Virus record (IMG/VR): IMGVR_UViG_3300048930_001424
Location: 26,257 to 90,256 of that record
From: a virus
Reading direction: 5' to 3' (one strand)
Length of the DNA: 64,000 nt
In this document: positions 5,477 to 22,554 of the stretch, one piece after another
Layout: the number at the start of each line of letters is the position of its first letter
How positions within the stretch are numbered: the first letter of the stretch is position 1
Notes under the pieces: generated by a model
What the model was told of the DNA's origin: nothing
What the model saw: only the letters and a program-made list of their open reading frames with translations
Database searches by the model: none
Program-made: the position numbers and the translations under genes

Positions 5477-6532
5477 TCACATTGAGAGTCGCAGTTCGCC
5501 GGGCTTGCGTTCGAATCGGCTGACAAAATCAGCCTCATGCAAGCAGAGCAATTGCGCCAGGCTCTCCGTAGTGTGCCCCGCCGAATCACGCAGTTCTCGG
5601 AGCAGATCATCGACCAGTACTGGCTCCTCGCCCGCTATTTCAACGAGTTCCTTCTTCCGCTGGCCCGTCACGCTGAGGCGACGGAACATGTGCTCGAAGT
5701 CGTTGTCCGAAATCCGACCAAGATCGCGAGCGCGATACACAAGTGAGGCCATCGAGACGCGCCACACAGGCTTGAGGCTCGCCGCACGGGTGAGAGTCAA
5801 ACCCGAGAGCTCTGAACCGATAAGGCTCTCAGGCATGAGAAACTCCGAGGCGAAGCGGTTCGCTTCGTCCTCCATCGTCTCCGTCGCCGTCTCGTGCATC
5901 ACGACGTGTCCGAGTTCGTGGCACAACGAGAACCTCACGCGATCCGCTGGTGCCTCGGCATTGATGAAGAACAGGGGCGGAGTGTCCTTTGGCCACATGC
6001 TGATCGCGTCGATGTCGCGTGTGCCGAACGCAAATTTGAAGACGATGCCGCCAGCCGCCTCAATGACGCGGACGAGATTCTGCACCGGGCCGCTGGGCAG
6101 CTGCCAACTGGCGCGAACCAGAGCCGCAATCTTCTCGGGATCGTGACCATGCTCGTCGATGTCGAGAAACTCGACGCTGTGGGGGGTCGAAATATCCACT
6201 TCACTGATCAATCGACGGACCAGCATCCGCCGAATATTGACCTCTGCTTCCAGACGATGGATGTCCGCGGCTTTGGTGGCCGCTTTCTTCCGGTAGAACA
6301 TGACGCTGAGGCCGAGACCACGCCGCTCGTCCTGCTGGAAAAAGAATGAACGTGGATACCCGAGAGTGGTGCAGATTCGATCCAGAACTTCTTCGGATGG
6401 CTCGCGGTGGCCTCCCTCCATGTGGCTGACGTAGGGCTGAGAGACTCTGAGTCGCTCGGCAAGCTCTGTTCGATTCATGGCACGCGATTCTCGCGCGAGC
6501 ACAAGCATGTCGTGGTTGAACGTGCCGGTCAT
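5477..6532 (-). CDS. XRE-family HTH / ImmA-IrrE metallopeptidase fusion
   Basis: The 351-residue protein has an N-terminal XRE helix-turn-helix (about residues 9-62, RTELAERLRVSQPYVSHMEGG) and a central ImmA/IrrE zinc peptidase domain with HELGH at 205-209 and a downstream DEANRFASEFLMP segment that supplies the remaining metal ligand and substrate pocket. Proteins of this plan cleave or sense repressors and occur in mobile elements and as toxin-antitoxin parts. It is the second gene of a leftward pair; its ATG overlaps the stop of the upstream gene. Its stop is 13 bases from the convergent Hint-protein stop. Either a regulator of the island or half of a toxin-antitoxin pair. Confidence 0.88.
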   Translation of the reverse strand: MTGTFNHDMLVLARESRAMNRTELAERLRVSQPYVSHMEGGHREPSEEVLDRICTTLGYPRSFFFQQDERRGLGLSVMFYRKKAATKAADIHRLEAEVNIRRMLVRRLISEVDISTPHSVEFLDIDEHGHDPEKIAALVRASWQLPSGPVQNLVRVIEAAGGIVFKFAFGTRDIDAISMWPKDTPPLFFINAEAPADRVRFSLCHELGHVVMHETATETMEDEANRFASEFLMPESLIGSELSGLTLTRAASLKPVWRVSMASLVYRARDLGRISDNDFEHMFRRLSVTGQRKKELVEIAGEEPVLVDDLLRELRDSAGHTTESLAQLLCLHEADFVSRFERKPGELRLSM

Positions 6533-7217: not shown

Positions 7218-7283
7218 ACAAATCATTACAGACGGGTCACGGGGGCACCAGAGGTCCCCGCCTAATCTCATCAGCCGCCGACA

Positions 7284-7311
7284 TTGACGGCACTATCGCA
7301 TGTGCTATACT
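7284..7311 (+). promoter_or_regulatory. Strong sigma70-type promoter of the five-gene defence operon
   Basis: TTGACG at 7284-7289 and TATACT at 7306-7311 are separated by 16 bases, and the -10 is preceded by TGC, an extended -10 arrangement. Transcription would begin near 7318 and leave a leader of about 40 bases before the ATG at 7356, which has AGGA 7 bases upstream. This supports the 7356 start over any start further upstream, because those would lie inside the promoter. Confidence 0.72.
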
Positions 7312-7355: not shown

Positions 7356-10300
7356 ATGCCTCCTGCCCGTCCAAGCAGCCCGGTCCCTGCGGACTACGGT
7401 GCGAAGATCAAGGAACTGCGCGGCCGCCTCGGCCTCACGCAGGTCAGGTTGTCTGAGCGTTTAGGAGTCTCGTTCGCCACCGTGAACCGGTGGGAGAACG
7501 CCCAAAGCCGTCCCTCTCCCTTGGCGTGGCAACAGATCCTGGAACTGGGTGGCGACGAAGAAGCCGTCGCCGAGGTACCCGAGGATCGCCCACGTTCAGC
7601 GGTCATGGATTTCACTGGCCGCCCTGATGCGATCAGGGCGCTGGCGGAGGGGGAGCGGCTCTCGTTTGGCCACATGACGAATCCCGTGTTCGCCACCGAA
7701 ATCGCTCAGATCGACCCGCTGCCGCACCAGCGCATCGCCGTCTACGACCACATGCTCAAGCAGCCTCGGCTCCGATTCCTGCTCGCCGACGACGCGGGCG
7801 CGGGCAAGACGATCATGTCGGGACTCTACATCCGCGAGATGTTGTCCCGGCGACTGCTGCGGCGCATTTTGGTGGTGCCGCCAGCCGGGCTCGTGGGGAA
7901 CTGGCGGCGCGAACTCTCGACGCTTTTCAGCCTGTCGTTCCGAATCGTCGAAGGCTCCGAAGCCGCGTCGGGCAATCCCTTCATTGGCGACGACAGTGAC
8001 CGCGTCATCGTGAGCGTGGACACCTTGTCCGGCCCGCGCGTGTTCGGCCGTCTCCGCGAACCAGAGGTGCAGCCCTACGACCTCGTGATCTTCGACGAGG
8101 CCCACAAGCTCGCCGCTGATCGCGGCGGCGACCTTAGGGTCCGCAGAACTGAGCGTTACCGACTGGCCGAGGCGTTGGCGGGCGTGCCAGATCTTGACGA
8201 GGCGTGGACGCTTCCCTGGAGCGCGGCCAACCTGCTGCTGCTGACGGCGACGCCGCACATGGGTAAGGACTATCCGTACTTTGCGCTGTGGCGGCTGCTC
8301 AATCCTTCTGTCATCTCCACGCCTGAAGCGTTCAACGAGTATCCCCCGGACCAGCGGGGGCTCCACTTCATCCGGCGCACCAAAGAGGAAATGGTCACGC
8401 TGACGGGTCGTCCGCTTTACCCAACGCGAATCTCCGACACGCTCGGCTACGCCCTGTCGCAGGGTGAAGTCAGCGAGCAGGCACTCTACGACGGCACCAC
8501 GGAGTACCTGCGATTCATCTACAACAAGGCGAAAATGCTGAACCGCTCGGCTGCTCGCCTGGCCATGAGCGTGTTCCAGCGCCGCTTGGCGAGTTCCACA
8601 TTCGCACTCCTGCGGTCCTTCGAGCGGCGGATAGAACGCTTGACGACGCTCATCGAGGATGTTCAGGCGGGCAAGATCACGATGGAGCAAATCATCACGC
8701 TCCAGCGCCGCATCTCTGACGATGACGACGTGTTCGACTCAAAGACGGCTGACGACGAACGGTCCCCGGTAGACGGCGGCGAGGAGAATGAAAAGGCCGA
8801 GCAGTCGCTGCTGCAGGGGGTGATCGCCGCGTCGATCGCCGACCTCATCGCCGAGCGCGACCAGGTGCAGGAACTCCGCGATCTCGCCCAGCGGGTGTAC
8901 GACAAGGGCGTCGAGTCCAAGTTCGAGAAGCTCCGGGAAGTCATCCTCGAGGACCGCTTCGCGCATGAGAAACTGATCGTCTTTACCGAGCACCGCGACA
9001 CACTCACATTTCTTGTCCGACGCCTCAATGGCATGGGGTACACCGGCCAGGTCGCTCAAATCCACGGCGGGATGCACTACAGCGAGCGCGAGGAACAGGT
9101 TGAAAAGTTCCGCAAGCCCATCGCCGAAGGCGGGGCACGGTTCATGATCTGTACCGACGCGGCCGCTGAGGGCATCAACCTTCAGTTCTGTTGGGTGATG
9201 ATCAACTACGACGTGCCCTGGAATCCCGCGCGGCTCGAACAGCGCATGGGCCGCATCCACCGCTACGGTCAGCAGCACGATCCCGTGATCATCATGAACC
9301 TCATCGCCCCCGAGACGCGCGAGGGCAAGGTGATGGAGACGCTCCTAGAGAAACTGGAGCGCATCCGTAAGCAGCTCAAGTCCGACAAGGTCTTCGACGT
9401 GATCGGACGGCTGTTCCAGGGTGTTTCGATCAAGCAGTACATGGAGGCCGCCGTCGAAGAGGATGACGCCGCAGCTGTCGCCGCCAAACTCGGTGGTATC
9501 CTGACCGCCGAGCAGGTCGAAGCGTTGGCCGAGCGAGAGAAGTCGCTCTTTGGGGATGGCGGCGATGTGAAGCGGGAACTGCCCCGTATCCGTGCTGAGA
9601 TCGACAACGAGGCATATCGCCGACTGCTGCCCGGCTATGTCCGCCAATACATCGAGAACGCCGCCCCGCTCGTGGACATCGAGATCGACGGAGATGCACG
9701 CTCGTTTTTTTCGTTCAAGCCCGCTCGTCGCGGCGCGATCGACCGCATCTTGCCCACGTTGGACTTCTACCCCACGCGCCTTCACGAACTCCTGACGGTC
9801 TCCCGCCCGCCCAGCAAAGCGGACGGTATCTGGGTGCATCCCGGCGAGCCCGTCTTTGAGCAGTTCCGGGCCATCGTGTCCGACCGGCTGAGCGCCGAGG
9901 CCGCGAAGGGCGGGGTGTTCGTCGATCCCGACGCGGAGCGCCCGTACCTATTCCACCTCGCGCTTGTGTCGGTCGTCCGCGACGCCGATCCGCAGATGCC
10001 CGAGCTCGGTGCAGCATCCACGTTTGAATCCCGTCTCGTCGGCGTCAAGCAGTTCGAAGGGACTGAACTTCAGGTCTGTCCCGTCGAGCACTTGCTGTTG
10101 CTCAAGGGAGGCACAGGGCTTCCAGCAGCGGCGCAACGGCTGGCGGTCGCGGCACCGGGACTCCGAGATCAGGCGGCCGCGTTCATCGTCGAACGCGTCG
10201 CCCGGCAGTTGGCCATCGACCGCAAGAACCGACTGCTCTCCACGATCGAGGAACGCGAAGCCTTCCTGCGGCGGGGCTTCAGCTACCAGGAGGCCGAACT

Positions 10301-10925
10301 CGCCGCCGCCCGCGGCAAGCAGGCCGAAAAGGCGCGATCAGGCAACCGCACCGCCGCGAAAGAACTGGAGGAGATCAAGCGGGCGCAGCGTGATCTCACG
10401 GCCCGCCGTGACCGAGCCATCGCGGTCATCCGCCGCGAGCCGGAACTGATCGGTCTTGCCCCGATTCATTTCGTCGCTCACGCTCTCGTGGTGCCATCCT
10501 CAGACCCGCTCGATCGCGAGCGACACGACGCTGATGTTGAGCATGTCGCCATGCAGATCGCTTGGGCATGGGAGGAATCAGAGGGAGCCGTCGTCAAGGA
10601 CGTGCATACGCCAGAACTCGCGCGGGCGGCGGGCTTGCCGGATTACCCGGGCTTCGATCTGTTGTCGGTGCGGCCGAGCGGTGAGAAACGGGGCATCGAG
10701 GTCAAGGGCCGTGCCGCGACCGGCGACGTGGAGTTGTTCTCCAACGAGTGGGCCAAGGCGTGCAACATGGGGCCGTCTTACTGGCTTTATGTGGTCTACG
10801 ACTGCGCCACTCCAACGCCGCGACGTGCGCGCGTCCGCGACCCATTCAATCGTCTGCTCGCCAAGGCAAAGGGCAGCATCCTCATCAGCGCTAAGCAGAT
10901 TCTCTCTGTGGAAGGCGATGCCTGA
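7356..10925 (+). CDS. XRE-HTH / SNF2-type helicase / DUF3883 fusion, defence operon gene 1
   Basis: The 1189-residue protein has three parts. Residues about 17-60 form an XRE helix-turn-helix (LTQVRLSERLGVSFATVNRWEN). Residues about 125-700 form an SF2/SNF2 helicase with DAGAGKT at 146-152 (Walker A), DEAH at 247-250, a LLLTATPH motif III and a C-terminal lobe ending in the motif VI-like QRMGRIHRYGQ. The C-terminal end is a DUF3883 domain with Asp1101, Glu1115 and Lys1117 in the order of a PD-(D/E)xK nuclease (GFDLLSV and GIEVKGR). Between them is an Arg/Glu coiled coil. It is expected to translocate on DNA and perhaps cut it, while the HTH may allow self-regulation or target binding. DISARM-type systems use a similar helicase, but no DUF1998 or PLD partner is present here. 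Confidence 0.88.
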   Translation: MPPARPSSPVPADYGAKIKELRGRLGLTQVRLSERLGVSFATVNRWENAQSRPSPLAWQQILELGGDEEAVAEVPEDRPRSAVMDFTGRPDAIRALAEGERLSFGHMTNPVFATEIAQIDPLPHQRIAVYDHMLKQPRLRFLLADDAGAGKTIMSGLYIREMLSRRLLRRILVVPPAGLVGNWRRELSTLFSLSFRIVEGSEAASGNPFIGDDSDRVIVSVDTLSGPRVFGRLREPEVQPYDLVIFDEAHKLAADRGGDLRVRRTERYRLAEALAGVPDLDEAWTLPWSAANLLLLTATPHMGKDYPYFALWRLLNPSVISTPEAFNEYPPDQRGLHFIRRTKEEMVTLTGRPLYPTRISDTLGYALSQGEVSEQALYDGTTEYLRFIYNKAKMLNRSAARLAMSVFQRRLASSTFALLRSFERRIERLTTLIEDVQAGKITMEQIITLQRRISDDDDVFDSKTADDERSPVDGGEENEKAEQSLLQGVIAASIADLIAERDQVQELRDLAQRVYDKGVESKFEKLREVILEDRFAHEKLIVFTEHRDTLTFLVRRLNGMGYTGQVAQIHGGMHYSEREEQVEKFRKPIAEGGARFMICTDAAAEGINLQFCWVMINYDVPWNPARLEQRMGRIHRYGQQHDPVIIMNLIAPETREGKVMETLLEKLERIRKQLKSDKVFDVIGRLFQGVSIKQYMEAAVEEDDAAAVAAKLGGILTAEQVEALAEREKSLFGDGGDVKRELPRIRAEIDNEAYRRLLPGYVRQYIENAAPLVDIEIDGDARSFFSFKPARRGAIDRILPTLDFYPTRLHELLTVSRPPSKADGIWVHPGEPVFEQFRAIVSDRLSAEAAKGGVFVDPDAERPYLFHLALVSVVRDADPQMPELGAASTFESRLVGVKQFEGTELQVCPVEHLLLLKGGTGLPAAAQRLAVAAPGLRDQAAAFIVERVARQLAIDRKNRLLSTIEEREAFLRRGFSYQEAELAAARGKQAEKARSGNRTAAKELEEIKRAQRDLTARRDRAIAVIRREPELIGLAPIHFVAHALVVPSSDPLDRERHDADVEHVAMQIAWAWEESEGAVVKDVHTPELARAAGLPDYPGFDLLSVRPSGEKRGIEVKGRAATGDVELFSNEWAKACNMGPSYWLYVVYDCATPTPRRARVRDPFNRLLAKAKGSILISAKQILSVEGDA

Positions 10926-10961
10926 GATTGTCCTGGTCGGATTCTCGTGGGAAGCTCCCTT

Positions 10962-12032
10962 ATGGCAGACACACACTCCAAGTCCATTTGTGCAACTCTG
11001 GCAGACTACCGGCATGGCGAGATCGCTGCTCGAACGCCAGCCGATGTCGATCGATGGATTAATCAGTTTGACAAGGGCGATCGAGACGTGGTCCTTCAGG
11101 AGACGGACCGGTTATTGCAAAAGCACTACGTCAGCGGAAAGGCCGCCAGGGCGTTCATCGACAGCATCTGGGCGACACAGAAGCTGATGGGAGCGTCGGC
11201 CGCATCAACAGTTGGCGGGTTCAAGTTCTTGGAGGTTGCCCGTAAGGGGGCAAGCCAAGGCGCCATGATCGAGTTGGCGAGATCTAGCCTCAAGCAGGCT
11301 CTCCGACTTGATCTCGATGCGTGCGGCAAGAGCCCTACGGCATACGTCTATTTAGATGACTGCCTTTTTTCCGGCAACACCGTTGTGCACGATCTCAAGG
11401 ATCACGTTGACGACCTGGCCAAGAACTCGACTGTCCACATGGTGTTCCTCGGCGGACACAACGGCGGGGTCAGGTACATCACGAAAGCTCTCGCACCCAT
11501 CCTCGCCAAGCGTGGGATCAAGCACAACGTATGGACGATCCCCACTCACACCTTTCAGAATCTACCCTGGGAGCCGGAGTCCTTCCAGCCGATGTGGCCC
11601 ACCGAGGTGAAGGGTGACAAGCTGGTCGATGCCTACCTGGCTCGCGTGCAGAAAGCGTGTGAGGGCAAGTCCTTCACGCCCAGGCTGTTCCGGCCTCAGG
11701 CACGGACCAAAGAGGACGTGTTCTCTTCCCCTGCGGCGCGTCAAGCTGTTGAGACCGCGTTTCTGCGCAAGGGAGCATTCATTGTCGCGCAGTGCCAGAA
11801 CCCGAAGGACAGCATGCGTCCGCTCGGCTACGAGTATCTGAGCTCACTCGGGTTTGGGGCGTTGATTGTGACCTACCGCAACATCGCGAACAACTGCCCC
11901 TTGGCGCTGTGGTGGGGCGATCCGAATGCCGCCAAGTCACATCCGCTCTCGAAGTGGTTCCCGTTGATCCCCCGTAGAAGCAATCAGGAGACTGCGAGCT
12001 CATCCTTCAGTGCTGACGATTACGACTTCTGA
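10962..12032 (+). CDS. Phosphoribosyltransferase-like (PRTase-CE type) protein, defence operon gene 2
   Basis: The 356-residue protein holds a PRPP-binding type motif at residues 130-140, YLDDCLFSGNT, with two acidic residues (Asp132, Asp133) followed by the S-G-N-T phosphate loop. The N-terminal helical part (WINQFDKGD and later ARAFIDSIW) is like that described for PRTase-related conflict-system proteins. Biosynthetic PRTases would not be expected in this setting, so a role in nucleotide or base modification or signalling linked to defence is inferred. It starts 36 bases after the helicase stop. A GTG 15 bases upstream of the chosen ATG is an alternative start. The substrate is unknown. Confidence 0.62.
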   Translation: MADTHSKSICATLADYRHGEIAARTPADVDRWINQFDKGDRDVVLQETDRLLQKHYVSGKAARAFIDSIWATQKLMGASAASTVGGFKFLEVARKGASQGAMIELARSSLKQALRLDLDACGKSPTAYVYLDDCLFSGNTVVHDLKDHVDDLAKNSTVHMVFLGGHNGGVRYITKALAPILAKRGIKHNVWTIPTHTFQNLPWEPESFQPMWPTEVKGDKLVDAYLARVQKACEGKSFTPRLFRPQARTKEDVFSSPAARQAVETAFLRKGAFIVAQCQNPKDSMRPLGYEYLSSLGFGALIVTYRNIANNCPLALWWGDPNAAKSHPLSKWFPLIPRRSNQETASSSFSADDYDF

Positions 12033-12045
12033 ATCGAACACCCAC

Positions 12046-15000
12046 ATGGCCAGAACACCAGAAACCCGCACCTACGACCGCGCGACCTCTGTGGTCTTCC
12101 TGAAGACCAAAGAGCGATTCGGTGGGCTGTCGAACATGGCGGGAGGGTTTCCATTGCAAGTTTGTGGCCGTCGCATCTTGACATCTGAGGCGTTGTACCA
12201 AGCGTGCCGGTTCCCGCACATGCCGGACATTCAGGAACTCATCGTCGATCAGTCGAGCCCGATGACTGCGAAGATGAAGAGCAAGCCCTACCGGAGTCAG
12301 TCCCGGGCGGATTGGGATGCTGTCCGCGTCACCATCATGCGCTGGTGTTTGCGCGTGAAGCTGGCTCAGAACTTCAAGTCGTTTAGCCGACTCCTGCGAG
12401 AGACGGGTGATCGGCCGATTGTCGAGGAGTCCCGCAAGGACGACTTCTGGGGCGCGAAGCCCTCCACGCCAGACCGGCTTGAAGGCAAGAACGTCCTCGG
12501 TCGCTTGCTTATGGAGCTTCGCCAACTCGTTCTGGCGACGGCGGACGACACGCTTCAGTCCGTCGACCCACCGGCCTTGCGTGAGTTTCTGATTTTTGGT
12601 CAACCGATCGGGCGGATTGGCGCGGGCGCGGCGGCACCCGCGCCCATGTCTGTCGCGGCGCTGTTCGCCGACGCTCCCGAGACATTGGAAGAAGCAAAGC
12701 CCATCACGGCCTCATCCGCTGGTCTCATCTCGCCCCCTGTGCCTGCTGTCGTTCCCGTGAGCATCACAATGACCGACCACCCACGCCTCATCGAACACGC
12801 CTTCCCATTGAAACAGGCGTCATTGGACTCCGTTCATGAGAAGAACGTGCGCCATGGCCACATTTCTACGATCCATCTCTGGCCAGCACGGCGACCCCTC
12901 GCTGCTTGCCGGGCGGCACTGATCGCCACTCTACTGCCGGACCCCGGCACGCCCGAAGGCCGTCTGGCGCTGTGTGAGAAGATTGGCGGACGAGTGGTCA
13001 AGCGGATCGAGAAGAAGAAAATGCCGAACGGCTCCACGGTCGAGCGAGAAAAGCTCGACACTGAAGGGGGCATCCTCCACTGGGGGCGAGAAGTTGAGAA
13101 CGTGGAGGCGATGGAGTGGTTCCGCCAGGAGATTCGCAAGGCCCACGGCGGCCGCGCTCCAAAGGTGCTTGACCCTTTTTCGGGTGGTGGCGCAATCCCG
13201 CTCGAAGCCATGCGACTGGGATGCGAAGCGACGGCCGTGGACATCAACCCGGTCGCATGGTTCACGCTCAAGTGCACTCTTGAATACCCGCAAAACCTCG
13301 CTGGTCAGACGTGTAGGCTCCCCGCATTCATTCTGCGCAATGAGGCCTTCATGTTCGAGTTCTTCACGAAGGCAAAGGGGATGAGCAAGGGCCAGGCCGC
13401 CAAGGCGATGGAACGGCTGGGACGGAAGCTCAAAGACGGAGAGCAGACTAACTTGGATTTCGGAGCCGCCGCGGGCGAACTCGACGCAGACATGGCATGG
13501 CACGTGCGGGCGTGGGGGCGATGGGTCCTAGAACGCGCCCGGCACGACCTATTCAAGTACTACCCGACTTACGCTGACTTCGAACCGCTTAAAGACAGCG
13601 GTAAGGTCTACGAGCGCCAGCCGATGCGCCTCGTTCCTGCGAATGAGAGCGGCGTTGCCGATTGTGATTCGCTCAACAGGGAGTTCTCAAAGGACTACCT
13701 GGCAGTCGCGGGCAATCCGCGGTGGTTGTCCAAACCGACAGTGGCGTATCTCTGGGCCCGCACAGTCACCTGCAAGAACTGTCGGGCAACGGTCCCATTG
13801 CTAAAGACACGCTGGCTTTGCAAGAGCGACAGAAAGCGGGTCGTTCTGACGATGACGCCACGTGCAGACGGGACTGGCGTTGTGTTCGGTATCGACAGCC
13901 AGGTTGAGAGCAAGGGTGGCAACGCAGCGCAGAAGAGGGAGCACGACAAAAAGGTCGGCGCGGGCACCATGAGCCGCGCCGGTGCCAAATGCCCCTGCTG
14001 TCCGAGCATCATGACGATGGAGGACATTCGCTTGGAGGGACAGGCCGGGCGACTCGGAAGTGTGATGACCGCAGTCGTCGCGGATGAACCTCAGGGCAAG
14101 ACTGGAAAGTCGTATCGCTTGCCGACTCGAGAGGAGCTCGAAGCGGCATCACTTGAGGAAGAGGCGATCAAGTCTGCATTCGCGGCCGTGCCGTTTGGCG
14201 TGCCTGAAGAGCCGACGCCCAGCGCTGATGCACTGGGCATGCGCATCCCGCTCTACGGATTCAACAAATGGAGAACGCTTTTCACTCCTCGGCAGTTGCT
14301 TGCCCTTGGTGTTTTCGTCACCGACACGCGCGACGCTCGCAACGAAATGACCACTCACGGATACTCAGAAGAGTGGGTCGAAGCGGTTGGGGCTTACCTA
14401 GCGTGTGGCATCGATCGCCTATTGGATTTCGCCAACTGCGGCACGCAATGGAAGCTCGACGCGAGCACCATCAACCACTCGTTCGTCCGCTTCGCTTTAC
14501 CGATTACCTGGGACTACGCAGAGGGGAATCTCCTCGGCGAAAGCGCGGGAAGTTATCTGATTTGCCAAGATCGGATCGCCACGGCCTTGGACACGTTTTG
14601 CGAGTGGAAGTTCAGGTCTCCGGCACCGAAGATCATCCGCCAGTCATCTGTGCAGCCCACGCGAGGCGAATTTGATCTCATCCTGACAGATCCACCGTAC
14701 TACGACGCAATCCCCTATTCGGATCTCATGGATTTTTTCTATGTGTGGCTTCGTCGAATGGTCGCCGGAGTAAGCAAGGACATCGATCTGGCATTTCAGG
14801 GCGACCTGTCGCCAAAATGGAGCGATGACGAGAACGATGGCGAGCTCGTTGACGACTCCAGCCGCCACAAGGGCGATGCGGCGAAGAGCAAACAAGTCTA
14901 CGAGGACGGCATGGCCCGCGTCTTCACTCAATGCGCGGCCGTCCTCAAACCACAAGGCCGCCTGGTAATCGTTTTCGCCAACAAACAGCCCGACGCCTGG

Positions 15001-16092
15001 GAAACGCTCGTCTCAGCGATCATTCGTGCGGGGTTCACAGTGGACGGAACCTGGCCCATCCAGACGGAGCAGGCGAGCCGAATGCGAGCGATTTCCTCTG
15101 CCGCCCTCGCGTCTTCCGTTTGGCTTGTGTGCAAGAAGCGTTCTGCGACCGCCACTGCGGGATGGGACAACCGCGTCGTCGAAGAGATGCGGACAAACAT
15201 CGGCAGGCGACTTCAAGAGTACTGGGATGCGGGGATCAAGGGGCCGGACTTCATCTGGGCAGCGACTGGCCCGGCTCTTGAAGCATTCAGCAAACATCCG
15301 GTCGTCAAGAAGGCCAACGGCCCCGGCACCATGAGTGTCACCGAGTTCCTCACGCACGTCCGTCGCCTCGTGGTGGACTACGTCGTCGGCCAGGTGCTTT
15401 CGGGCACGGATGGTGCCAGCGGAGTAGTTGGGAGTGGTGCGGCCGCCGACAGGTTGGATGAAGCCACGGCCTACTACTTACTTCACCGCAACGATTTTGG
15501 TCTCGGTGAAGCTGCCGTGGGCACCGTCATCCTCTACGCCGTCTCGTGCGGACTCTCCGACCGCGACTTGGTTGATACTTGGGAATTGGCCGTCATGGTC
15601 GGTGATGACACTGTCACAGCCGATGATGCAGAAGACGAAGCTCAAGACGGTGGTGACGGACCTTCCGAGGATGAGTCAGGTAGCAAGGGGAGCACCATCC
15701 GCCTAAAGCGATGGAGTGAACGCACAGGTCGGAGCAGCGCCTCCATCGGCTACGAAGCCCCCGGCGGACGACCCGTGCCGCTCATCGATCGTGTCCACCG
15801 CGTGATGCAGTTGTACAAGGCTGGCGACATCGGTAAGGTTGACGAGTATCTTGACGAGCACGGTCTGCGCCGTCACGAACTGTTTAAGCGTGTAATCCAG
15901 TCACTGATCGAGGTGTCGCGCCGGGAGCGAGGGACGGCCGCGGGCGGTCGTGATGATCACGGCGACGAGACGACGCTACTCGAAGCTCTCAGCAACCACA
16001 TCGGGGCCAAGGGTGCGAAGCGGCAGACAGGCCAGCGCGAACTAAGCGAGACCACCGACAATTGGACGCCGACCTCGGCGTCGGCGGAGTAA
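12046..16092 (+). CDS. NADAR domain fused to DUF1156 adenine-type DNA methylase, defence operon gene 3
   Basis: This 1348-residue protein begins with a complete NADAR (YbiA-like) domain, residues about 10-170: FGGLSNMAGGFPL, TSEALYQACRFP, WCLRVKLAQN, TGDRPIVEES, DDFWGA and NVLGRLLMELR are the family landmarks. A Pro/Ala linker follows to about 240. The rest is a DUF1156 methylase: HPRLIEHAFPL and HLWPARRPLAACRA at the front, SAM motif I DPFSGGG at 376-382, Cys pairs of a zinc ribbon (CKNCRA and CPCCPS), and catalytic DPPY at 882-885. The C-terminus is acidic then basic. The methylase would mark host DNA; NADAR enzymes act on ADP-ribose or ADP-ribosylated guanine. The fusion ties DNA modification to NAD/ADP-ribose chemistry. 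ATG at 12046 follows the PRTase stop by 13 bases. Confidence 0.87.
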   Translation: MARTPETRTYDRATSVVFLKTKERFGGLSNMAGGFPLQVCGRRILTSEALYQACRFPHMPDIQELIVDQSSPMTAKMKSKPYRSQSRADWDAVRVTIMRWCLRVKLAQNFKSFSRLLRETGDRPIVEESRKDDFWGAKPSTPDRLEGKNVLGRLLMELRQLVLATADDTLQSVDPPALREFLIFGQPIGRIGAGAAAPAPMSVAALFADAPETLEEAKPITASSAGLISPPVPAVVPVSITMTDHPRLIEHAFPLKQASLDSVHEKNVRHGHISTIHLWPARRPLAACRAALIATLLPDPGTPEGRLALCEKIGGRVVKRIEKKKMPNGSTVEREKLDTEGGILHWGREVENVEAMEWFRQEIRKAHGGRAPKVLDPFSGGGAIPLEAMRLGCEATAVDINPVAWFTLKCTLEYPQNLAGQTCRLPAFILRNEAFMFEFFTKAKGMSKGQAAKAMERLGRKLKDGEQTNLDFGAAAGELDADMAWHVRAWGRWVLERARHDLFKYYPTYADFEPLKDSGKVYERQPMRLVPANESGVADCDSLNREFSKDYLAVAGNPRWLSKPTVAYLWARTVTCKNCRATVPLLKTRWLCKSDRKRVVLTMTPRADGTGVVFGIDSQVESKGGNAAQKREHDKKVGAGTMSRAGAKCPCCPSIMTMEDIRLEGQAGRLGSVMTAVVADEPQGKTGKSYRLPTREELEAASLEEEAIKSAFAAVPFGVPEEPTPSADALGMRIPLYGFNKWRTLFTPRQLLALGVFVTDTRDARNEMTTHGYSEEWVEAVGAYLACGIDRLLDFANCGTQWKLDASTINHSFVRFALPITWDYAEGNLLGESAGSYLICQDRIATALDTFCEWKFRSPAPKIIRQSSVQPTRGEFDLILTDPPYYDAIPYSDLMDFFYVWLRRMVAGVSKDIDLAFQGDLSPKWSDDENDGELVDDSSRHKGDAAKSKQVYEDGMARVFTQCAAVLKPQGRLVIVFANKQPDAWETLVSAIIRAGFTVDGTWPIQTEQASRMRAISSAALASSVWLVCKKRSATATAGWDNRVVEEMRTNIGRRLQEYWDAGIKGPDFIWAATGPALEAFSKHPVVKKANGPGTMSVTEFLTHVRRLVVDYVVGQVLSGTDGASGVVGSGAAADRLDEATAYYLLHRNDFGLGEAAVGTVILYAVSCGLSDRDLVDTWELAVMVGDDTVTADDAEDEAQDGGDGPSEDESGSKGSTIRLKRWSERTGRSSASIGYEAPGGRPVPLIDRVHRVMQLYKAGDIGKVDEYLDEHGLRRHELFKRVIQSLIEVSRRERGTAAGGRDDHGDETTLLEALSNHIGAKGAKRQTGQRELSETTDNWTPTSASAE

Positions 16093-16098
16093 TCGAAC

Positions 16099-19000
16099 AT
16101 GGCAAAACTACCCTGGAAACCCTGGCACGAAGTGGTCAAGCTGCGGGACGATCTCAAGTCAGGCGAGCTGCCTCTGCACATGTTCGCTGCGGACCTCTAC
16201 GAGGTCCTGATGCAGAACGGCAAACGGCCGATCTACGAAAAACCGGAGAACTTCTTCGCGCTGACTTTCCCGACGCACAACCTGCGCGCCCTGGTTCGTG
16301 ACGTGGTGCTTCGCGTCGCAGGCAAAAATGACAAGGCTGTGCGCCAGTTGGAGCTCACATACGGCGGTGGCAAGACGCACACGCTCATCACACTCCGCCA
16401 TCTCGTGCATGATCCGTCGGCACTGCCGGACGTGCCCGCCGTCGGCGAGTTCGAGCAAGCGATTGGGATGAAGCCACCGAAGGCCCGCGTCGCTGGCCTG
16501 TGCTTTGACAAGCTCGACGTTGAGACGGGAATGGATGTTCGGTCGCCGGACGGCAAGGTCCGGCGGCTGAAGCAGCCCTGGAGCGTGCTCGCGTACCAGA
16601 TCGCGGGCGATGACGGGCTCAAGCTCCTGCACGCCGACAAGAAGGCCGAGGAACGCGAGTCAGCCCCCGCCGAGAACGTCCTCACCGAGTTGCTGGAGAT
16701 CCCGGTCAAGCAGGGCTTCGGCGTGCTCATCCTCATCGATGAGGTGCTGATGTATGTGCGCGAGAAGGTCGCCCTCGCGCCCGACTACCGGGCGCGTATG
16801 GTGAACTTCTTCCAGTACCTGACGCAGGCGGCTACAAAGGTGGACCGCTGCTGCATCGTGGCCTCGCTTCTGGCCAGCGACCCCAAGAAGAATGACGCCT
16901 TCGGCAACGAACTCAAGGCCGAGCTCTACGACATCTTCCAACGCCAACGAGAAGAGGCCGTCGAGCCGGTCGTAAAGGAGGACGTGGCCGAGGTGCTTCG
17001 GCGGCGGTTCTTCACGACCGAGTCCATCAAGACCCCCGGCGACTTCAAGCAGCATGTGATCGCCGCAATCAAGGGCATCGCCGACCTAGACGAGCAGACC
17101 GCCAAGCAGGGACTCGCGACGGAGGACCGCTACCTCAAGAGCTTCCCCTTCCACCCCGAACTGACGGAAGTCTTCTACAGCAAGTGGACCCAACTGGATG
17201 GCTTCCAGCGCACCCGTGGCGTGCTGCGGACGTTCGCGCTCGCGCTCCGCGAAGCGGAGAAGTGGGATACCAGCCCCCTCGTTGGTCCTGCGGCGTTCCT
17301 GACCGCGCCGGGCAAGAGCGGTCTTTCAGAGGCGGTGGGCGAACTCGTCACGGTGGCCGACACCGGCGGAGGCGACGGCGGCCGCCGCCAGGCGTGGACT
17401 GGCATCCTCGTGGGCGAGTTGGCGCAGGCCCAGAACATCCAGTTGGAGTCGGTCGGCCTGAGGTTCCGTGAGATCGAGGAGGCCGTGATCGCCACGTTCC
17501 TTCACTCTCAGCCCATCGGTCAGACAGCCAAGACGCGGGAACTCATGCTCCTGCTGGGGCCGACCCGCCCGTTCCGAATCGATTTGGAGAAGGGCCTCAC
17601 CCGCTGGGCACAAACGAGTCATTGGCTCGACGACCGCCTCGCACCCGGAGGGAACGACCTGCCCGCCCAGTGGCGGCTGGGCAACCGCCCGAACCTCAAC
17701 CAGATGCACTCCAAGGCTGCGGGCGAGATCTCCGATGATGTAGCTCGCGCCCGCCTGATCGATGAGATCGGCAAGACTAAGGCCCTGACCTCCGGCGCCT
17801 CAGCCGCTGGTGTGCGCGTTCACACGCTCCCTGCCAAGCCAAAGGAAATCGACGATGACGGCGTGTTCCGGTACGCAGTGCTGGGACCGAGCGCGGCCTC
17901 GGAATCGGGCAAGCCGAGCGCCGAGGCCAAACGGTTCCTTGACGAGACCACAGGCGCGGAAAAGCCCCGCGTGTTTCGCAACTCCGTGCTGCTGCTGACC
18001 CCGTCAAAGGACGGGCTCGAAGTGGCGATGGCCCGCGTGCGCGAGCTCATGGCGTGGGACGTGGTCCAGAAGGACCTCAAGGAGCAGGAGAAAGAGGGGA
18101 ACGTCGATGCGTCGCGGTTGGCGACGTTGGCCATGAACATCGACAAAGCCAAGGGCCGCATTCCCGAAGCGGTGAAGCAGGCGTACTGCATCGTCGTGAC
18201 CGTGAACGACAAGGACGATGTCCACGCCTTCAAGATCACGGTCACCGACGATCCAATCTTTCAGACAATCAAAGAGGATCAGCGGTCACGCATTCAGGAC
18301 ACGGCGATCACCGCAGAGGCCCTCCTCCCCGATGGTCCGTATAGCCTCTGGAAAGAGGGCGAAACCAGTCGTCGCGTGAAGGACCTCGCCGGGGCGTTTG
18401 CGCAGATGCCGCACCTTCCGAAGATGCTCAAGTCGCAGGCGATCGTGGACACGTTGGTGGAAGGCTGCGCACAGGGTGCGTTCGTTTTGCGCCTGATGCG
18501 CCCCGACCGGACGTTCCGTACCTGGTGGAGGAGTCGCCCCGACGAGGCGGCGCTTAACGATCCCGCGCTCGAACTCGTGTTGCCGAAGGCAGCTGAACTC
18601 ACAGACGTGGATTCTGATCTGCTGCGGCAAGGCGCGCTGCCGAGCCTCTGGGCTGGCACTCAGATCACGGTTGCGGATGTGAAGTCGTATTTCAACGGCT
18701 CCAAGGTCGTTCAGGTTCAACGGGATGGGTACGAGGAACCCGTGCTGATTCCCAAGGCATCGAGCGAGGCGATCGAGCGGGGGGTGACGGAGGCAGTTGA
18801 GGCAGGGGCCATCTGGCTCACGTCTGGCCCGGCGAGCCTTTTGGGCGAACCGATCCCAGCAGGAATCCTCACCGACGCTGCGACGCTGCTCCCACCACCC
18901 GCGGCGATCACCGCTCCCGAAATCCTGCCCGAAAATCTGCCGTCGGCGTGGCAGGGCGGCGAAGCAACCGCCCTGGCGCTGGCCACCGCGCTGTCGCAGA

Positions 19001-19413
19001 ACGTGGGGAGGACGCTGCCGTGGAAAACCGTTCGAGACGTGATCGGCGGCGCGATCGCAGCGAGGTTTGTGTCCGTTGGTTCCGGGACATGGCCATGTGA
19101 CTTGGCCGGTGCGGGAGTCGTGCGGCTCAAGGTTGTCGCCGCTTCTGGCGGCGGAGGCGGAGGCGGGGGTGGCCCCGGCGAAGGCCGCAAGCAGAACGTT
19201 GCCATCGCCGCTGCGGACTTCGAGCCGTCTGAGATTCAGGACCTGAGCGACCACATGGCGCGGCTGCTTGAGATTCGTGCAAAGGCCAACGTGCCGATTC
19301 GCTTCCATGTCCGCGTGGAGCTTGGCGATGGGGCCAAGCCCCTGGACAAGAAACTCCTCGCGGAGTTCAACCAGGAACTGGCATCCCTCAAGGACGGGTT
19401 CTCTGTTCAATAA
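16099..19413 (+). CDS. DUF499 AAA-type ATPase, defence operon gene 4
   Basis: The 1104-residue protein starts 6 bases after the methylase stop. It has a Walker A YGGGKT at 88-93 (in ELTYGGGKTHTL) and a Walker B LILIDE ending at Asp214-Glu215, within the N-terminal half, then a long helical region, and a Gly-rich linker near residue 1020 before a short C-terminal domain. This matches DUF499, a large ATPase family that is regularly found with DUF1156 methylases. It probably assembles with the methylase and helicase and powers DNA sensing or translocation, by analogy with the large ATPases of BREX. No nuclease motif is visible. Confidence 0.85.
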   Translation: MAKLPWKPWHEVVKLRDDLKSGELPLHMFAADLYEVLMQNGKRPIYEKPENFFALTFPTHNLRALVRDVVLRVAGKNDKAVRQLELTYGGGKTHTLITLRHLVHDPSALPDVPAVGEFEQAIGMKPPKARVAGLCFDKLDVETGMDVRSPDGKVRRLKQPWSVLAYQIAGDDGLKLLHADKKAEERESAPAENVLTELLEIPVKQGFGVLILIDEVLMYVREKVALAPDYRARMVNFFQYLTQAATKVDRCCIVASLLASDPKKNDAFGNELKAELYDIFQRQREEAVEPVVKEDVAEVLRRRFFTTESIKTPGDFKQHVIAAIKGIADLDEQTAKQGLATEDRYLKSFPFHPELTEVFYSKWTQLDGFQRTRGVLRTFALALREAEKWDTSPLVGPAAFLTAPGKSGLSEAVGELVTVADTGGGDGGRRQAWTGILVGELAQAQNIQLESVGLRFREIEEAVIATFLHSQPIGQTAKTRELMLLLGPTRPFRIDLEKGLTRWAQTSHWLDDRLAPGGNDLPAQWRLGNRPNLNQMHSKAAGEISDDVARARLIDEIGKTKALTSGASAAGVRVHTLPAKPKEIDDDGVFRYAVLGPSAASESGKPSAEAKRFLDETTGAEKPRVFRNSVLLLTPSKDGLEVAMARVRELMAWDVVQKDLKEQEKEGNVDASRLATLAMNIDKAKGRIPEAVKQAYCIVVTVNDKDDVHAFKITVTDDPIFQTIKEDQRSRIQDTAITAEALLPDGPYSLWKEGETSRRVKDLAGAFAQMPHLPKMLKSQAIVDTLVEGCAQGAFVLRLMRPDRTFRTWWRSRPDEAALNDPALELVLPKAAELTDVDSDLLRQGALPSLWAGTQITVADVKSYFNGSKVVQVQRDGYEEPVLIPKASSEAIERGVTEAVEAGAIWLTSGPASLLGEPIPAGILTDAATLLPPPAAITAPEILPENLPSAWQGGEATALALATALSQNVGRTLPWKTVRDVIGGAIAARFVSVGSGTWPCDLAGAGVVRLKVVAASGGGGGGGGGPGEGRKQNVAIAAADFEPSEIQDLSDHMARLLEIRAKANVPIRFHVRVELGDGAKPLDKKLLAEFNQELASLKDGFSVQ

Positions 19414-19445
19414 ATCCAGATGACGGGCATCGCTAAAGGAGCCCC

Positions 19446-20240
19446 ATGCCAGCTAATGCACGAGATACATTCCGGATCGACATCGCCCGCGCTCAGGCTT
19501 TGGTAGATCATGCGGCGTCGCTCCCGAGTGGCTCAGACCCGGAACATCTGTTGCGGGACGATGTGCTGCGTTCCGGCTGGATGTTCGCGGTTGGGGCGAT
19601 GGATGCCTATTTCTGCGATGCCTATGCAGACGTGATTGCCGCGACACTGATTTGCAAAGCGAGAGAACCGGGGGTCGTATTACCTGCCTTCGTGCTGAAG
19701 ATCCAAGTGCCAGTGGCGACGATCCTCGAGGCCTACACGGCTCGCCCGAACTGGAAGTGGCGCATGGCTGCCCGGGCCATGCTCGAGGAGGAAAACGCCT
19801 TGCAGATCGAGACGATTCGGAAGTGGTTCAACCCCTTCTTTGACAAGCCCGCAAAAGTGTTCTTTGAAGTCGTTCCAGCATGGCTCGCAGTTGCCCCAGC
19901 ACCTGACAGGCTCTTTGGCACGACCAATGCTGTCTTTTCCGCATTGGTCGGGAAGGCTCGTTCAGATGCCCACACGGAGGCCCGAGACGCGTTTCATGGT
20001 CGGTTGACTGAGATGGTCCAGCGGCGGCACGACTGCATCCATGCCTGCGACCGTCCCGGCAACTCGCCGCAGCCAATTGCGGGGCCGGGCACCGTTGGAA
20101 ACGTCATTCGCGACATTACCTTTGTGGTCGAGCAGTTCAACACCCATCTCGATACCGAGTTCCGGCGCTGGCTCGCCTGCGGCGGTGTGCCGGGGTCCAC
20201 GGGCTTTTCAAACGCCGCGATTCAGCAGGTGGGGTATTGA
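19446..20240 (+). CDS. HEPN-domain protein (RiboL-PSP-HEPN-like), defence operon gene 5
   Basis: The 264-residue all-helical protein has an N-terminal LRSGWMFAVGAMDAYF segment and, near the C-terminus, the HEPN ribonuclease signature R-x4-H: Arg194-HDCI-His199, in QRRHDCIH. Both match RiboL-PSP-type HEPN proteins, whose active members cut RNA. It follows a clear AAAGGAG ribosome site and is the last gene before a strong terminator. In this operon it is the likely toxic effector, possibly controlled by the DUF499 ATPase or PRTase. The alternative is an inactive regulatory HEPN, but both key residues are present. Confidence 0.7.
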   Translation: MPANARDTFRIDIARAQALVDHAASLPSGSDPEHLLRDDVLRSGWMFAVGAMDAYFCDAYADVIAATLICKAREPGVVLPAFVLKIQVPVATILEAYTARPNWKWRMAARAMLEEENALQIETIRKWFNPFFDKPAKVFFEVVPAWLAVAPAPDRLFGTTNAVFSALVGKARSDAHTEARDAFHGRLTEMVQRRHDCIHACDRPGNSPQPIAGPGTVGNVIRDITFVVEQFNTHLDTEFRRWLACGGVPGSTGFSNAAIQQVGY

Positions 20241-20370: not shown

Positions 20371-20397
20371 AGGGCCGCGGCCAAGTGCCGCGGCCCT
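20371..20397 (+). terminator. Intrinsic terminator of the five-gene operon
   Basis: An 11-base perfect stem, AGGGCCGCGGC paired with GCCGCGGCCCT, closes a 5-base loop and is followed by GTTCGTTT. It lies 130 bases after the HEPN gene. The U tract is weak, but the stem is long and GC-rich. Confidence 0.7.
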
Positions 20398-20658: not shown

Positions 20659-22554
20659 TCAGCGCACGGCCTGCTCGCCGGCGAGGATGCGATCGAGCCA
20701 GGCAACGTCCCAGATGCGGTCGGCGATCCGGCGGTAGAGCGCCTGCCGTTCGTCGAGGTCCGCCTTCTTGAACTGACCATGCGCCCGGAACGGAAGTTCC
20801 TGATCCCGGACAAAGCGGACGAATCCGGGGTTGTGCTCGTAGGCGCGAGGGTGCAGCGACTTGGCCAGCGCGTTTTGTCCGAAGTAGTGCTCCAGCTTGT
20901 CGGCATAGGGCCGATCCCCGTAGGAGGCGTTGAACGACTTGGGGAGCAGCAGGAGGCCGCCAAACCGGTTGCGGTAGTCTTCGAAGTCGGTCTTGTGCTG
21001 AAACTCGTCGCGGAAATCCTCCGGGTGGTTCGGCCAGATGTGCTCGACCTCGAATCCCTTCTTCCCCCGAAGCGTGATGTACTCCGCGTAGCGAGACTGG
21101 CCGCCGCCGCTCACATCGATGTAGTCCGCCATGCGAGCCAGTAGACGCTTGATCGGCTTGTGGCTCCACTGGTTCAGATAAAACCCATCGAACCCCGTGA
21201 GCCTCTCGGTTTGCTCTTCGAGCCGCTTGCGCAACGCCGCGGCGATCTCCTTCGGGCTGCCGCCCCGGATGTCGCGCACGACGGTGAAGACGTTGTACTG
21301 CAGCGAGTTGTAGTCGCAGTTGCGGAAGTTGCACAGTCGGCGCGACAGATAGATGTCTGCGTACTTGGCGACGAGCCGCATCTTCAGCCGGATCACGTCG
21401 TCGGAATCGCTCCGTGACAGGGCAGCCAGCAACAGCGTCGGCTGGTGGGTGAACTGGTGCGTGGCGTTGTGGTAGACGTTCTCCAGCCCAGGCGTTGGCT
21501 GCATTTCCGCTCGGCGGATGACCATGTACCACTTCGCGTAGAAGGCCATCTCCGCCGTAATGAAATCCCGGTACGCGGGCGAATGCGGCTGGCTGTTCTT
21601 CGCCAGGCCAACACGATCTGCCTGCTCTCGCACCCAGCGGTGGAACTCCGTGCCGATCCGGTCCCACGCCTCGGGCCGAGCATCCTTCTTGCGGATGCGG
21701 ATGTTGTCGGCGTACTGGCTGCGGAGCCACGCCTTGAAGAAGTCGGAGTCGTACTCCTGGTTGTCGGGCGCCAGCGCCCTCATCTCGGCCAGCATCCTCT
21801 TCCACTCGGCGCTCGCAGCGTCGCGGGAACGGGTATCCGCGATGTTCGCCAGCAGGTACCCCTTGAGCATGTCCGTCGGCGACAGTGATAGGCCGCGGTC
21901 ATTCATGGTCTCGAAGATCGTGTAGGCGACATCATCGGAGTAGGCGGTGATCTCGACCAGGTGAACGTTCTTGGTGAGCCAATCCACGAAATAAGGGAGG
22001 GCGGCATCATCGATCTCGTCGGGCCAGAGCTCCTCAATCTCGTTGTACCGGGCCACGATGTTTCTCGACGACTCGGGCAGGTCCTCGTCGTCGATGTCGG
22101 TCCCGTCGAATAGCGCCTGCATGATGGCCCGCCGCTCCGGCACATCGACGTTGAACGACTTCTCGCCGTACTCCTCTGAGTAGATCATCTCCCCGACGCT
22201 GTTCTGTTGTTTCGCGGCCTGCTGCCGCTTCATCAAGAACAGCAGGACCAGCGTGAGCGTCGTCAATCGCTGCTGGCCGTCGATGATGTAGTCGCGGCCG
22301 TCCTTCTGGCTCACGATGATCGAGCCCAGGAAGTACCGGTCATAGCCGGCGACGGCGCGACGCTCGTGCCCGGGCTCGTAGCTCCGGAAAAACACGTCGG
22401 TCAGGTCGCTGATCAACTCCTCCAGCTGCTTGGTCTGCCACTTGTACTCGCGCTGGTAGTAGTCGATGTAGAACTTCCGGCCGAACAGGATCTCGCGGAG
22501 CGTCTTGCCCTTGCCGTCGATGTTCTTCCGCTGGATGGATTGGTCGTTGCTCAT
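20659..22554 (-). CDS. GmrSD-like type IV restriction protein (DUF262 + DUF1524 HNH)
   Basis: The 631-residue protein begins with a DUF262 domain carrying YQREYKW and the family signature DGQQRLTTL (residues 92-100), followed by helical parts, and ends with a DUF1524 His-Me nuclease: VEHIWPN with Glu504-His505, then a downstream NRFGGLLLLPKSFN. This is the single-chain GmrS-GmrD arrangement that cuts foreign DNA with modified cytosines. Length is typical. It is transcribed against both neighbours, convergent with the HEPN operon and divergent from hsdR, so it is its own unit. It would complement the methylation-dependent systems beside it by attacking hypermodified phage DNA. Confidence 0.88.
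   Translation of the reverse strand: MSNDQSIQRKNIDGKGKTLREILFGRKFYIDYYQREYKWQTKQLEELISDLTDVFFRSYEPGHERRAVAGYDRYFLGSIIVSQKDGRDYIIDGQQRLTTLTLVLLFLMKRQQAAKQQNSVGEMIYSEEYGEKSFNVDVPERRAIMQALFDGTDIDDEDLPESSRNIVARYNEIEELWPDEIDDAALPYFVDWLTKNVHLVEITAYSDDVAYTIFETMNDRGLSLSPTDMLKGYLLANIADTRSRDAASAEWKRMLAEMRALAPDNQEYDSDFFKAWLRSQYADNIRIRKKDARPEAWDRIGTEFHRWVREQADRVGLAKNSQPHSPAYRDFITAEMAFYAKWYMVIRRAEMQPTPGLENVYHNATHQFTHQPTLLLAALSRSDSDDVIRLKMRLVAKYADIYLSRRLCNFRNCDYNSLQYNVFTVVRDIRGGSPKEIAAALRKRLEEQTERLTGFDGFYLNQWSHKPIKRLLARMADYIDVSGGGQSRYAEYITLRGKKGFEVEHIWPNHPEDFRDEFQHKTDFEDYRNRFGGLLLLPKSFNASYGDRPYADKLEHYFGQNALAKSLHPRAYEHNPGFVRFVRDQELPFRAHGQFKKADLDERQALYRRIADRIWDVAWLDRILAGEQAVR

What the first reader, a model, noticed from the sequence alone, without database searches (positions are those of the whole stretch)
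7356..20240. Five-gene defence operon combining XRE-helicase-DUF3883, PRTase, NADAR-DUF1156 methylase, DUF499 ATPase and HEPN
The five rightward genes are tightly spaced, begin behind one strong promoter (7284-7311) and end at one terminator (20371-20397). Helicase, methylase and large ATPase resemble DISARM/BREX logic, but there is no DUF1998, PLD, PglZ or alkaline-phosphatase-type gene. Three added parts (PRTase-like, NADAR and HEPN) point to nucleotide/ADP-ribose chemistry and RNA cleavage. I do not know of a described system with this exact set.
Basis: partly seen in the sequence, partly recalled or inferred. Interest (0 to 1): 0.87.

Follow-up and report, generated by a model that had tools for sequence, protein, structure and literature searches.

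The report
Defence operon with embedded toxin-antidote pair
A bacterial anti-virus gene set of a known type (a helicase, a DNA methylase and an ATPase) has swallowed a second known anti-virus pair, a probable base-modifying toxin and the enzyme that should undo it, and has welded the antidote onto its own methylase; the same pair is wired in the same way into classical restriction enzymes.

Summary
The five genes are real, but they are not one unnamed system. Genes 1, 3 and 4 form an Hma system (HmaA helicase-nuclease, HmaB methylase, HmaC ATPase; also called BREX-related, 'BR'). Gene 2 and the NADAR front of gene 3 both pass NCBI's equivalog cut-offs for the two-gene anti-phage system DS32. 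So this is Hma with an embedded DS32, the NADAR antidote fused to the methylase. Gene 5 is only weakly HEPN-like and is not shared by relatives.

Relatives show a rule. DS32-type PRTase and NADAR sit together in all 36 distinct complete pairs examined: alone in prophages and plasmids, inside Type I R-M systems (NADAR fused to the specificity subunit HsdS), and inside Hma (beside or fused to HmaB). Relatives lacking the pair exist for both hosts. The PRTase is swapped or fast-diverging (about 50% identity) between otherwise 92-97% identical loci, while NADAR stays constant.

Best model, inferred: the PRTase is the phage-facing effector that makes a ribosyl-phosphate N-glycoside; NADAR erases it and is tethered to the host's DNA-marking subunit, arming the restriction system with a backup toxin. 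Novelty: a new composite variant of two known systems.

The parts
7284..7311 (+). sigma-70-like promoter (TTGACG-16-TATACT)
   Evidence: 10 of 12 matches, but the count of such sites in the region is no higher than in shuffles
7356..10925 (+). HmaA: XRE-type HTH + Swi2/Snf2 helicase + C-terminal NOV_C/DUF3883 with D1101...E-V-K1117 nuclease-like motif
   Evidence: (PADLOC HmaA 500 bits over residues 84-1175)
10947..12032 (+). DS32_1: PRTase-CE phosphoribosyltransferase-like effector; PRPP-loop motif YLDDxxFSG; likely true start ATG at 10962
   Evidence: 1e-48; 322 bits, cut-off 250
12010..12609 (+). DS32_2: NADAR N-glycosidase domain (residues 20-200 of gene 3); likely true start ATG at 12046
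   Evidence: (272 bits, cut-off 240)
12769..16092 (+). HmaB: DUF1156 DNA amino-methylase, fused in frame to the NADAR; the HmaB start seen in unfused relatives is kept as an internal ATG at 12769
   Evidence: PADLOC HmaB 375 bits; DPFSGGG, DPPY
16099..19413 (+). HmaC: DUF499 AAA+-type ATPase
   Evidence: PADLOC HmaC 242 bits
19446..20240 (+). HEPN-like protein of weak support (RRHDCIH motif); not conserved in related loci
20371..20397 (+). terminator-like hairpin after the last gene
   Evidence: count of such sites no higher than in shuffles
5477..6532 (-). XRE + ImmA/IrrE (M78) protein, PADLOC RmrA-like, divergent upstream; possible regulator, not claimed as part of the system
20659..22554 (-). 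GmrSD-type type IV restriction protein (PADLOC HEC-06/Orf5-like), convergent downstream; a neighbour, not claimed as part of the system

Best explanation
Shown by sequence: this is an Hma (BREX-related) restriction-modification-like operon with the two-gene DS32 anti-phage pair embedded between HmaA and HmaB, and the DS32 NADAR fused to the front of the HmaB methylase. Inferred mechanism: HmaC, HmaB and HmaA mark self DNA and find and destroy unmarked DNA. The PRTase is a second, toxic effector that uses PRPP to place a 5-phosphoribosyl group on an amine, most likely of a nucleobase in nucleic acid or a nucleotide. NADAR is the antidote that hydrolyses that N-glycosidic bond. Tethering the NADAR to the subunit that recognises and methylates DNA (HmaB here, HsdS in Type I systems) ties the antidote to an intact modification complex, so a phage that inhibits, titrates or evades that complex leaves the PRTase product unrepaired and the infection aborts. 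This resembles in principle the PrrC backup nuclease of Type I systems (known from the literature, not tested here).
For: Core identity: PADLOC HmaA/B/C at 500/375/242 bits, with the same order and 59-67% identity in L081, L082, L138 and L206. DS32 identity: NF053875 322 bits and NF053876 272 bits, both above cut-off; RefSeq names such pairs 'anti-phage protein' in some E. coli prophages. Obligate pairing: PRTase then NADAR on the same strand in all 33 IMG/VR loci, 3 of 3 plasmids and 5 of 5 genomes (36 distinct complete pairs); 0 of 21 other PF24390 loci have an adjacent NADAR. Host wiring: NADAR-HsdS fusion inside Type I R-M in L008, L068, L099, L101, L103 and L117; separate NADAR overlapping HmaB in L081 and L082; relatives without the pair: L138 (Hma) and L222-L227 (HsdM followed directly by HsdS). 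Antidote logic: NADARs remove ADP-ribose from the guanine amino group and act as DarT1 antitoxins, and family members cleave N-glycosides of riboflavin intermediates (PMC11543638, PMC11125620). Catalytic E43/E125 equivalents are kept in 44 of 44; the ligand-contacting K50 equivalent is R in all 43 DS32 NADARs. DS32-like NADARs occur without a PRTase in phages and plasmids, whereas no DS32-type PRTase without NADAR was found. The PRTase keeps an invariant PRPP-loop DD, and its model's best structural matches are uracil and orotate phosphoribosyltransferases. PRTase varies at 48-52% identity between loci whose NADAR is 82-97% identical, so NADAR cannot depend on fine recognition of one PRTase; this fits an antidote acting on a shared product.
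Against: No experiment on this locus. The PRTase acceptor is unknown, and the PRTase could make a small-molecule signal instead. Foldseek E-values for the PRTase model are only 6e-3 at best. The stand-alone DS32 exists without an R-M host, so coupling to the modification complex is not needed for the pair to persist. In L081 and L082 NADAR is not fused. HmaB may also be made alone from an internal ATG at 12769. The papers held give no mechanism for DS32.
Confidence: 0.45

Rival explanations
1. [quoted passage not shown]
For: PRTases are proposed to make signal nucleotides in Ter systems (PMC5512222, PMC7824862); NADARs act on small N-glycosides (PMC9503650); a HEPN-like gene follows here.
Against: Stand-alone DS32 pairs have only two genes and no conserved third effector; gene 5 is absent from L081 and L082.
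Confidence: 0.25
2. The pair is a DNA-mark writer and eraser: the PRTase adds a ribosyl mark to DNA, and the NADAR tethered to HsdS/HmaB removes it only at or near the system's own recognition sites, giving a second layer of self/non-self marking beside methylation.
For: NADAR is fused specifically to the DNA-recognition/methylation subunit in two different R-M-like systems.
Against: Stand-alone pairs have no DNA-specificity subunit; the PRTase is swapped while NADAR and the methylase are not, which is odd for a writer matched to a site-specific eraser.
Confidence: 0.12
3. Passive hitch-hiking: DS32 merely landed in the defence operon and the fusion is a neutral read-through with no mechanistic coupling.
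For: The HmaA/HmaB junction takes other inserts too: a 306-aa unknown gene in L206, NYN in L209, AAA genes plus DUF3226 in L211; stand-alone DS32 pairs exist.
Against: The pair enters next to the DNA-recognition/modification gene in both host systems, always with NADAR nearest to it, and all six Type I examples have NADAR fused to HsdS, including loci with HsdM only about 64-66% identical.
Confidence: 0.18

Closest known systems
Hma system (PADLOC; DUF499-centred BREX-related 'BR' systems, Type-1-like)
   Same: Helicase with C-terminal nuclease-like domain, DUF1156 methylase and DUF499 ATPase in the order A-B-C; PADLOC models hit all three.
   Different: XRE-type HTH at the front of the helicase; PRTase and NADAR inserted between A and B; NADAR fused to B; extra HEPN-like gene. 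The BR survey (PMC12839542) mentions neither NADAR nor PRTase.
DS32 / DS-32 (NCBIfam NF053875 + NF053876; name matches the DS numbering of DefensePredictor, PMC13092281)
   Same: Both proteins pass the equivalog cut-offs; same gene order.
   Different: Second component is not a free 200-aa protein but the N-terminus of a 1360-aa methylase; host is an Hma operon rather than a lambdoid prophage.
DarT1-NADAR toxin-antitoxin (DarTG1)
   Same: Ribosyl-transferring partner encoded with a NADAR of the same superfamily that could hydrolyse the N-glycoside.
   Different: PRTase fold and PRPP-loop motif instead of an ADP-ribosyltransferase; K50-equivalent is R, whereas the corresponding residue (K95) is conserved as K in the DarT1-linked NADARs.
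PrrC/EcoprrI backup nuclease in Type I R-M (from general knowledge)
   Same: A toxic effector wired into a Type I R-M locus as a second line.
   Different: PrrC is an anticodon nuclease held by the HsdMSR complex; here a PRTase with an enzymatic antidote fused to the specificity/modification subunit.
HEC / defences embedded in immune systems (Payne et al. 2024 preprint, cited in PMC13092281; not held)
   Same: Defence genes nested inside other immune operons; the HmaA/HmaB junction behaves as such a slot here.
   Different: I could not read the preprint; whether DS32-in-Hma is listed there is unknown to me.

Membership tests
Hma / Type-1 BR system | DUF499 AAA+ ATPase (HmaC) | tested here: met
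   PF04465 1.3e-20; PADLOC HmaC 242 bits
Hma / Type-1 BR system | DUF1156 N6-methylase (HmaB) | tested here: met
   PF06634 8e-17; PADLOC HmaB 375 bits; DPFSGGG and DPPY motifs
Hma / Type-1 BR system | Swi2/Snf2 helicase with C-terminal PD-(D/E)XK nuclease | tested here: met
   PADLOC HmaA 500 bits; D1101-E1115-V-K1117 invariant in relatives within NOV_C; nuclease fold not modelled
Hma / Type-1 BR system | N-terminal TUDOR domain on the helicase | tested here: inconclusive
   Pfam finds an XRE-type HTH at residues 18-63 instead; no structure made
Type-2 / Type-3 BR | DUF3780 + HKD nuclease (Type-2), PglZ + iSTAND (Type-3) | tested here: not met
   No such Pfam family in the five genes
DS32 | DS32_1 phosphoribosyltransferase-like protein above cut-off | tested here: met
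   322 bits, cut-off 250
DS32 | DS32_2 NADAR family protein above cut-off | tested here: met
   272 bits, cut-off 240, as a domain of gene 3
DS32 | anti-phage activity | not testable with these tools
   needs plaque assays
NADAR N-glycosidases | catalytic E43 and E125 equivalents | tested here: met
   kept in the window and in 44 of 44 NADARs aligned; residues from PMC11543638
DarT1-associated (BC4488) NADARs | aspartate at the E125 position, K at the K95 position | tested here: not met
   E and R instead
RiboL-PSP HEPN (gene 5) | profile match above cut-off and RX4-6H motif | tested here: inconclusive
   15.3 bits against cut-off 28.4; motif RRHDCIH present; fold failed
DISARM | DrmA/DrmB (DUF1998), DrmC (PLD) | tested here: not met
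   no DUF1998 or PLD family among the five genes; DrmD similarity is the shared helicase and is below the NCBIfam cut-off (324 of 610 bits)

The most novel reading that the evidence does not exclude
DS32 would be a phosphoribosylation toxin-antidote: a PRPP-using enzyme that adds 5-phosphoribose to nucleobase amines, a nucleic-acid modification not described in the papers I could search, with a dedicated glycohydrolase. Restriction systems would have repeatedly captured it by fusing the glycohydrolase to their DNA-recognition subunit, so that damage to the modification complex triggers the toxin; the PRTase would be diversified by allele swapping against phage inhibitors, and phages would carry orphan DS32-like NADARs as counter-defence.
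Probability: 0.25. Interest if true: 0.85.

Novelty: new variant of a known kind. Interest (0 to 1): 0.6.

Why it matters
DS32 has been named as anti-phage but no mechanism for it was found in the papers searched. The fusions found here (NADAR-HmaB, NADAR-HsdS), the asymmetry (no DS32-type PRTase without NADAR, NADARs without PRTase in phages and plasmids), and the swapping of the PRTase alone inside near-identical loci give concrete, testable clues: PRTase as the toxic, phage-facing part and NADAR as a product-level antidote. They also suggest a general design in which restriction systems carry a reversible-modification toxin hard-wired to their specificity subunit, and they predict a class of phage counter-defence genes.

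Tried and rejected
Single-protein scans of IMG/VR with the window PRTase found nothing and of genome contigs found only L008; the profile scan then worked. The HmaB profile scan of IMG/VR found no relatives. The general PF24390 family was rejected as a proxy for DS32: 21 of its loci are other PRTase contexts without adjacent NADAR, three with a distant K-type NADAR 2-6 kb away. A PDB sequence search for the PRTase found nothing meaningful. Gene 5: no relatives, fold failed, so HEPN is kept only as a weak call. DISARM and BREX proper rejected for lack of their defining genes. A survey meant for another class (centre G704) turned out to repeat the class of G001. Papers on PRTase effectors in retrons and DprA systems give precedent but no mechanism. 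In the trees, the window NADAR groups with the Hma-borne NADARs of L081/L082 while its PRTase sits on a separate long branch; with few sequences I do not press this beyond the identity comparison.

Full report
Observation. Pfam gives HTH_3 + helicase + NOV_C for gene 1, PRTase-CE for gene 2, NADAR + DUF1156 for gene 3, DUF499 for gene 4 and only a sub-threshold HEPN hit for gene 5. The promoter- and terminator-like sites are present but no more frequent than in shuffled sequence. The window lies in a 90,256-bp IMG/VR record. Phage portal and capsid genes flank the defence region on either side and a serine recombinase follows it, so this is a defence island in or between phage-like elements.

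The core is a named system. PADLOC models HmaA, HmaB and HmaC match genes 1, 3 and 4 at 500, 375 and 242 bits. Hma was named in PMC8565338 and re-described as DUF499-centred BREX-related systems in PMC12839542. That survey does not mention NADAR or PRTase. Gene 1 carries a D...E-V-K motif in its C-terminal NOV_C domain, invariant among close relatives, and gene 3 carries DPFSGGG and DPPY methylase motifs. The locus therefore fits the Type-1-like BR layout, with an XRE-type HTH in front of the helicase.

The rest, except gene 5, is another named system. NCBIfam NF053875 (DS32_1, phosphoribosyltransferase-like anti-phage protein) matches gene 2 at 322 bits (cut-off 250). NF053876 (DS32_2, NADAR family anti-phage protein) matches residues 20-200 of gene 3 at 272 bits (cut-off 240). 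The name fits the DS numbering of DefensePredictor (PMC13092281), which reports validated systems with PRTase and NADAR domains; its main text does not discuss DS-32 and gives no mechanism. That DS32 equals DS-32 is my inference from the names. RefSeq annotates the pair in E. coli lambdoid prophages (63 of 5,426 genomes matched at DNA level).

DS32 is a mobile, strictly linked pair. A profile of ten PRTases found 33 IMG/VR loci, and every one has NADAR immediately downstream on the same strand. The three plasmid hits and the genome hits behave the same way. After removing exact duplicates there are 36 distinct complete pairs. As a control, 21 other loci of the wider PF24390 family have no adjacent NADAR. 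Many pairs are stand-alone in prophages; the count is not of independent events.

It plugs into restriction systems beside the DNA-recognition or modification gene. In L008 (Paracoccus luteus), L068, L099, L101, L103 and L117 the order is HsdM, (GmrSD), PRTase, NADAR-HsdS fusion, HsdR. In L081 and L082 the order is HmaA, PRTase, NADAR, HmaB, HmaC with NADAR overlapping HmaB by 4 bp. In the window the two are fused in frame, and the HmaB start of the unfused relatives survives as an internal ATG at 12769. Relatives without the pair exist: L138 has HmaA-HmaB-HmaC with nothing between, and L222-L227 have HsdM followed directly by HsdS. Other Hma loci carry other genes in the same slot: an unknown 306-aa gene in L206, an NYN-domain gene in L209, AAA genes and DUF3226 in L211. 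No NADAR-bearing HmaB was seen among the plasmid records listed for an HmaB query: all 40 listed of 215 matched only from about residue 238 on, and none of the 215 covered 80% of the query.

The PRTase varies alone. L081 and L082 are 95/97/92/97% identical in HmaA/NADAR/HmaB/HmaC but 49.7% in PRTase, and DNA identity falls from about 94% to about 50% over the PRTase gene and recovers after it. L008 and L068 are 92/93/82% identical in HsdM/GmrSD/NADAR but 47.6% in PRTase (HsdS also varies, as target-recognition domains do). Two E. coli DS32 types have 52% PRTase but 85% NADAR identity. The middle of the PRTase varies most; its ends are the best kept in L081/L082 and L008/L068, only its C-terminal end in E. 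coli. NADAR is more conserved than PRTase in 44 of 45 pairwise comparisons. A local gene replacement or very fast divergence of the PRTase explains this; in either case NADAR does not track the PRTase, which argues against a fine-tuned binding antitoxin and for an enzyme acting on a shared product. This step is inference.

Chemistry. NADARs hydrolyse ADP-ribose from the guanine amino group in DNA and RNA, and family members cleave N-glycosides of riboflavin intermediates (PMC11543638, PMC11833690, PMC11125620). The catalytic E43 and E125 equivalents are kept in all 44 NADARs aligned; the ligand-contacting K50 equivalent is arginine in all 43 DS32 NADARs and in four orphan relatives, but lysine in YbiA and distant NADARs. 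In a DarT1-linked NADAR the same K-to-R change kept hydrolysis in vitro but lost rescue of DarT1 toxicity, so DS32 NADARs may serve a different substrate. The PRTase has an invariant DD PRPP-loop, and its model (pLDDT 81) best matches uracil and orotate phosphoribosyltransferases, at weak E-values. A PRTase that puts phosphoribose on an amine would create the type of N-glycosidic bond NADARs cut. The acceptor is unknown.

Direction of toxicity. No DS32-type PRTase was found without a NADAR, while DS32-like NADARs (131-198 bits, below the equivalog cut-off) occur without a recognised PRTase in phage-like contigs L003 and L004 and on plasmids L214 and L216. Two related E. coli strains carry an IS element inside the PRTase with NADAR annotated as present. 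Both fit PRTase as toxin and NADAR as antidote; neither proves it.

Verdict. What seems new, as far as the searched papers go, is the combination and the rule behind it: DS32 nested in Hma and in Type I R-M next to the specificity/modification gene, with the NADAR fused to that subunit, and PRTase replacement inside fixed loci. The Payne 2024 preprint on embedded defences could not be read and may overlap.

Noticed in passing
L003:9995-10576; L004:9995-10516: Orphan DS32-like NADARs (180 and 162 bits, R at the K50 position) in AT-rich phage-like contigs without a PRTase: candidate phage counter-defence against DS32.
   Followed up: partly
L081:9251-10240 versus L082:9482-10519; L008:4647-5702 versus L068:9500-10546: PRTase alone replaced or hyper-diverged between otherwise near-identical defence loci.
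   Followed up: yes
window 20659-31390: Next to the operon: a convergent GmrSD gene, a second Type I R-M system (HsdR 22505-25081, HsdM 25156-27087, HsdS-like 27084-29099 with a weak Methylase_S match) and an AAA_21/AAA_15 ATPase gene (29103-30563).
   Followed up: partly
window 5477-7221: Divergent XRE-IrrE (PADLOC RmrA-like) gene and an unknown 230-aa gene; a distant RmrA-like gene also lies upstream of the DS32-bearing Type I locus in L002 (1017-2225).
   Followed up: no
L079:12131-13717 and window 44557-45978: Two ParB-N + N6/N4 methylase genes, with a phage portal gene at L079:18247-19704 and a phage capsid gene at window 52393-54711: possibly two phage-like elements flanking the island.
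   Followed up: no
L108:10906-12012: DS32 NADAR with an extra C-terminal region of about 156 aa of no known family, a possible further fusion.
   Followed up: partly
L089:7513-13496; L093:10518-16539; L095:6437-12574: A recurring multi-gene cluster with a different PF24390 PRTase and a distant K-type NADAR nearby on varying strand; possibly another PRTase-based conflict system.
   Followed up: no
L103:5037-6308: A RhuM-family gene sits between the NADAR-HsdS fusion and HsdR.
   Followed up: no
L225:11566-13294; L226:5839-7567; L227:10823-12551: A 216-aa + 353-aa gene pair (same lengths in all three) sits between HsdS and HsdR in DS32-free Type I relatives: another embedded module.
   Followed up: no
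E. coli ybiA operon (literature, PMC11125620): YbiA (NADAR) is in an operon with YbiB, predicted to have DNA-binding and phosphoribosyltransferase activity: a second NADAR/PRTase association.
   Followed up: no
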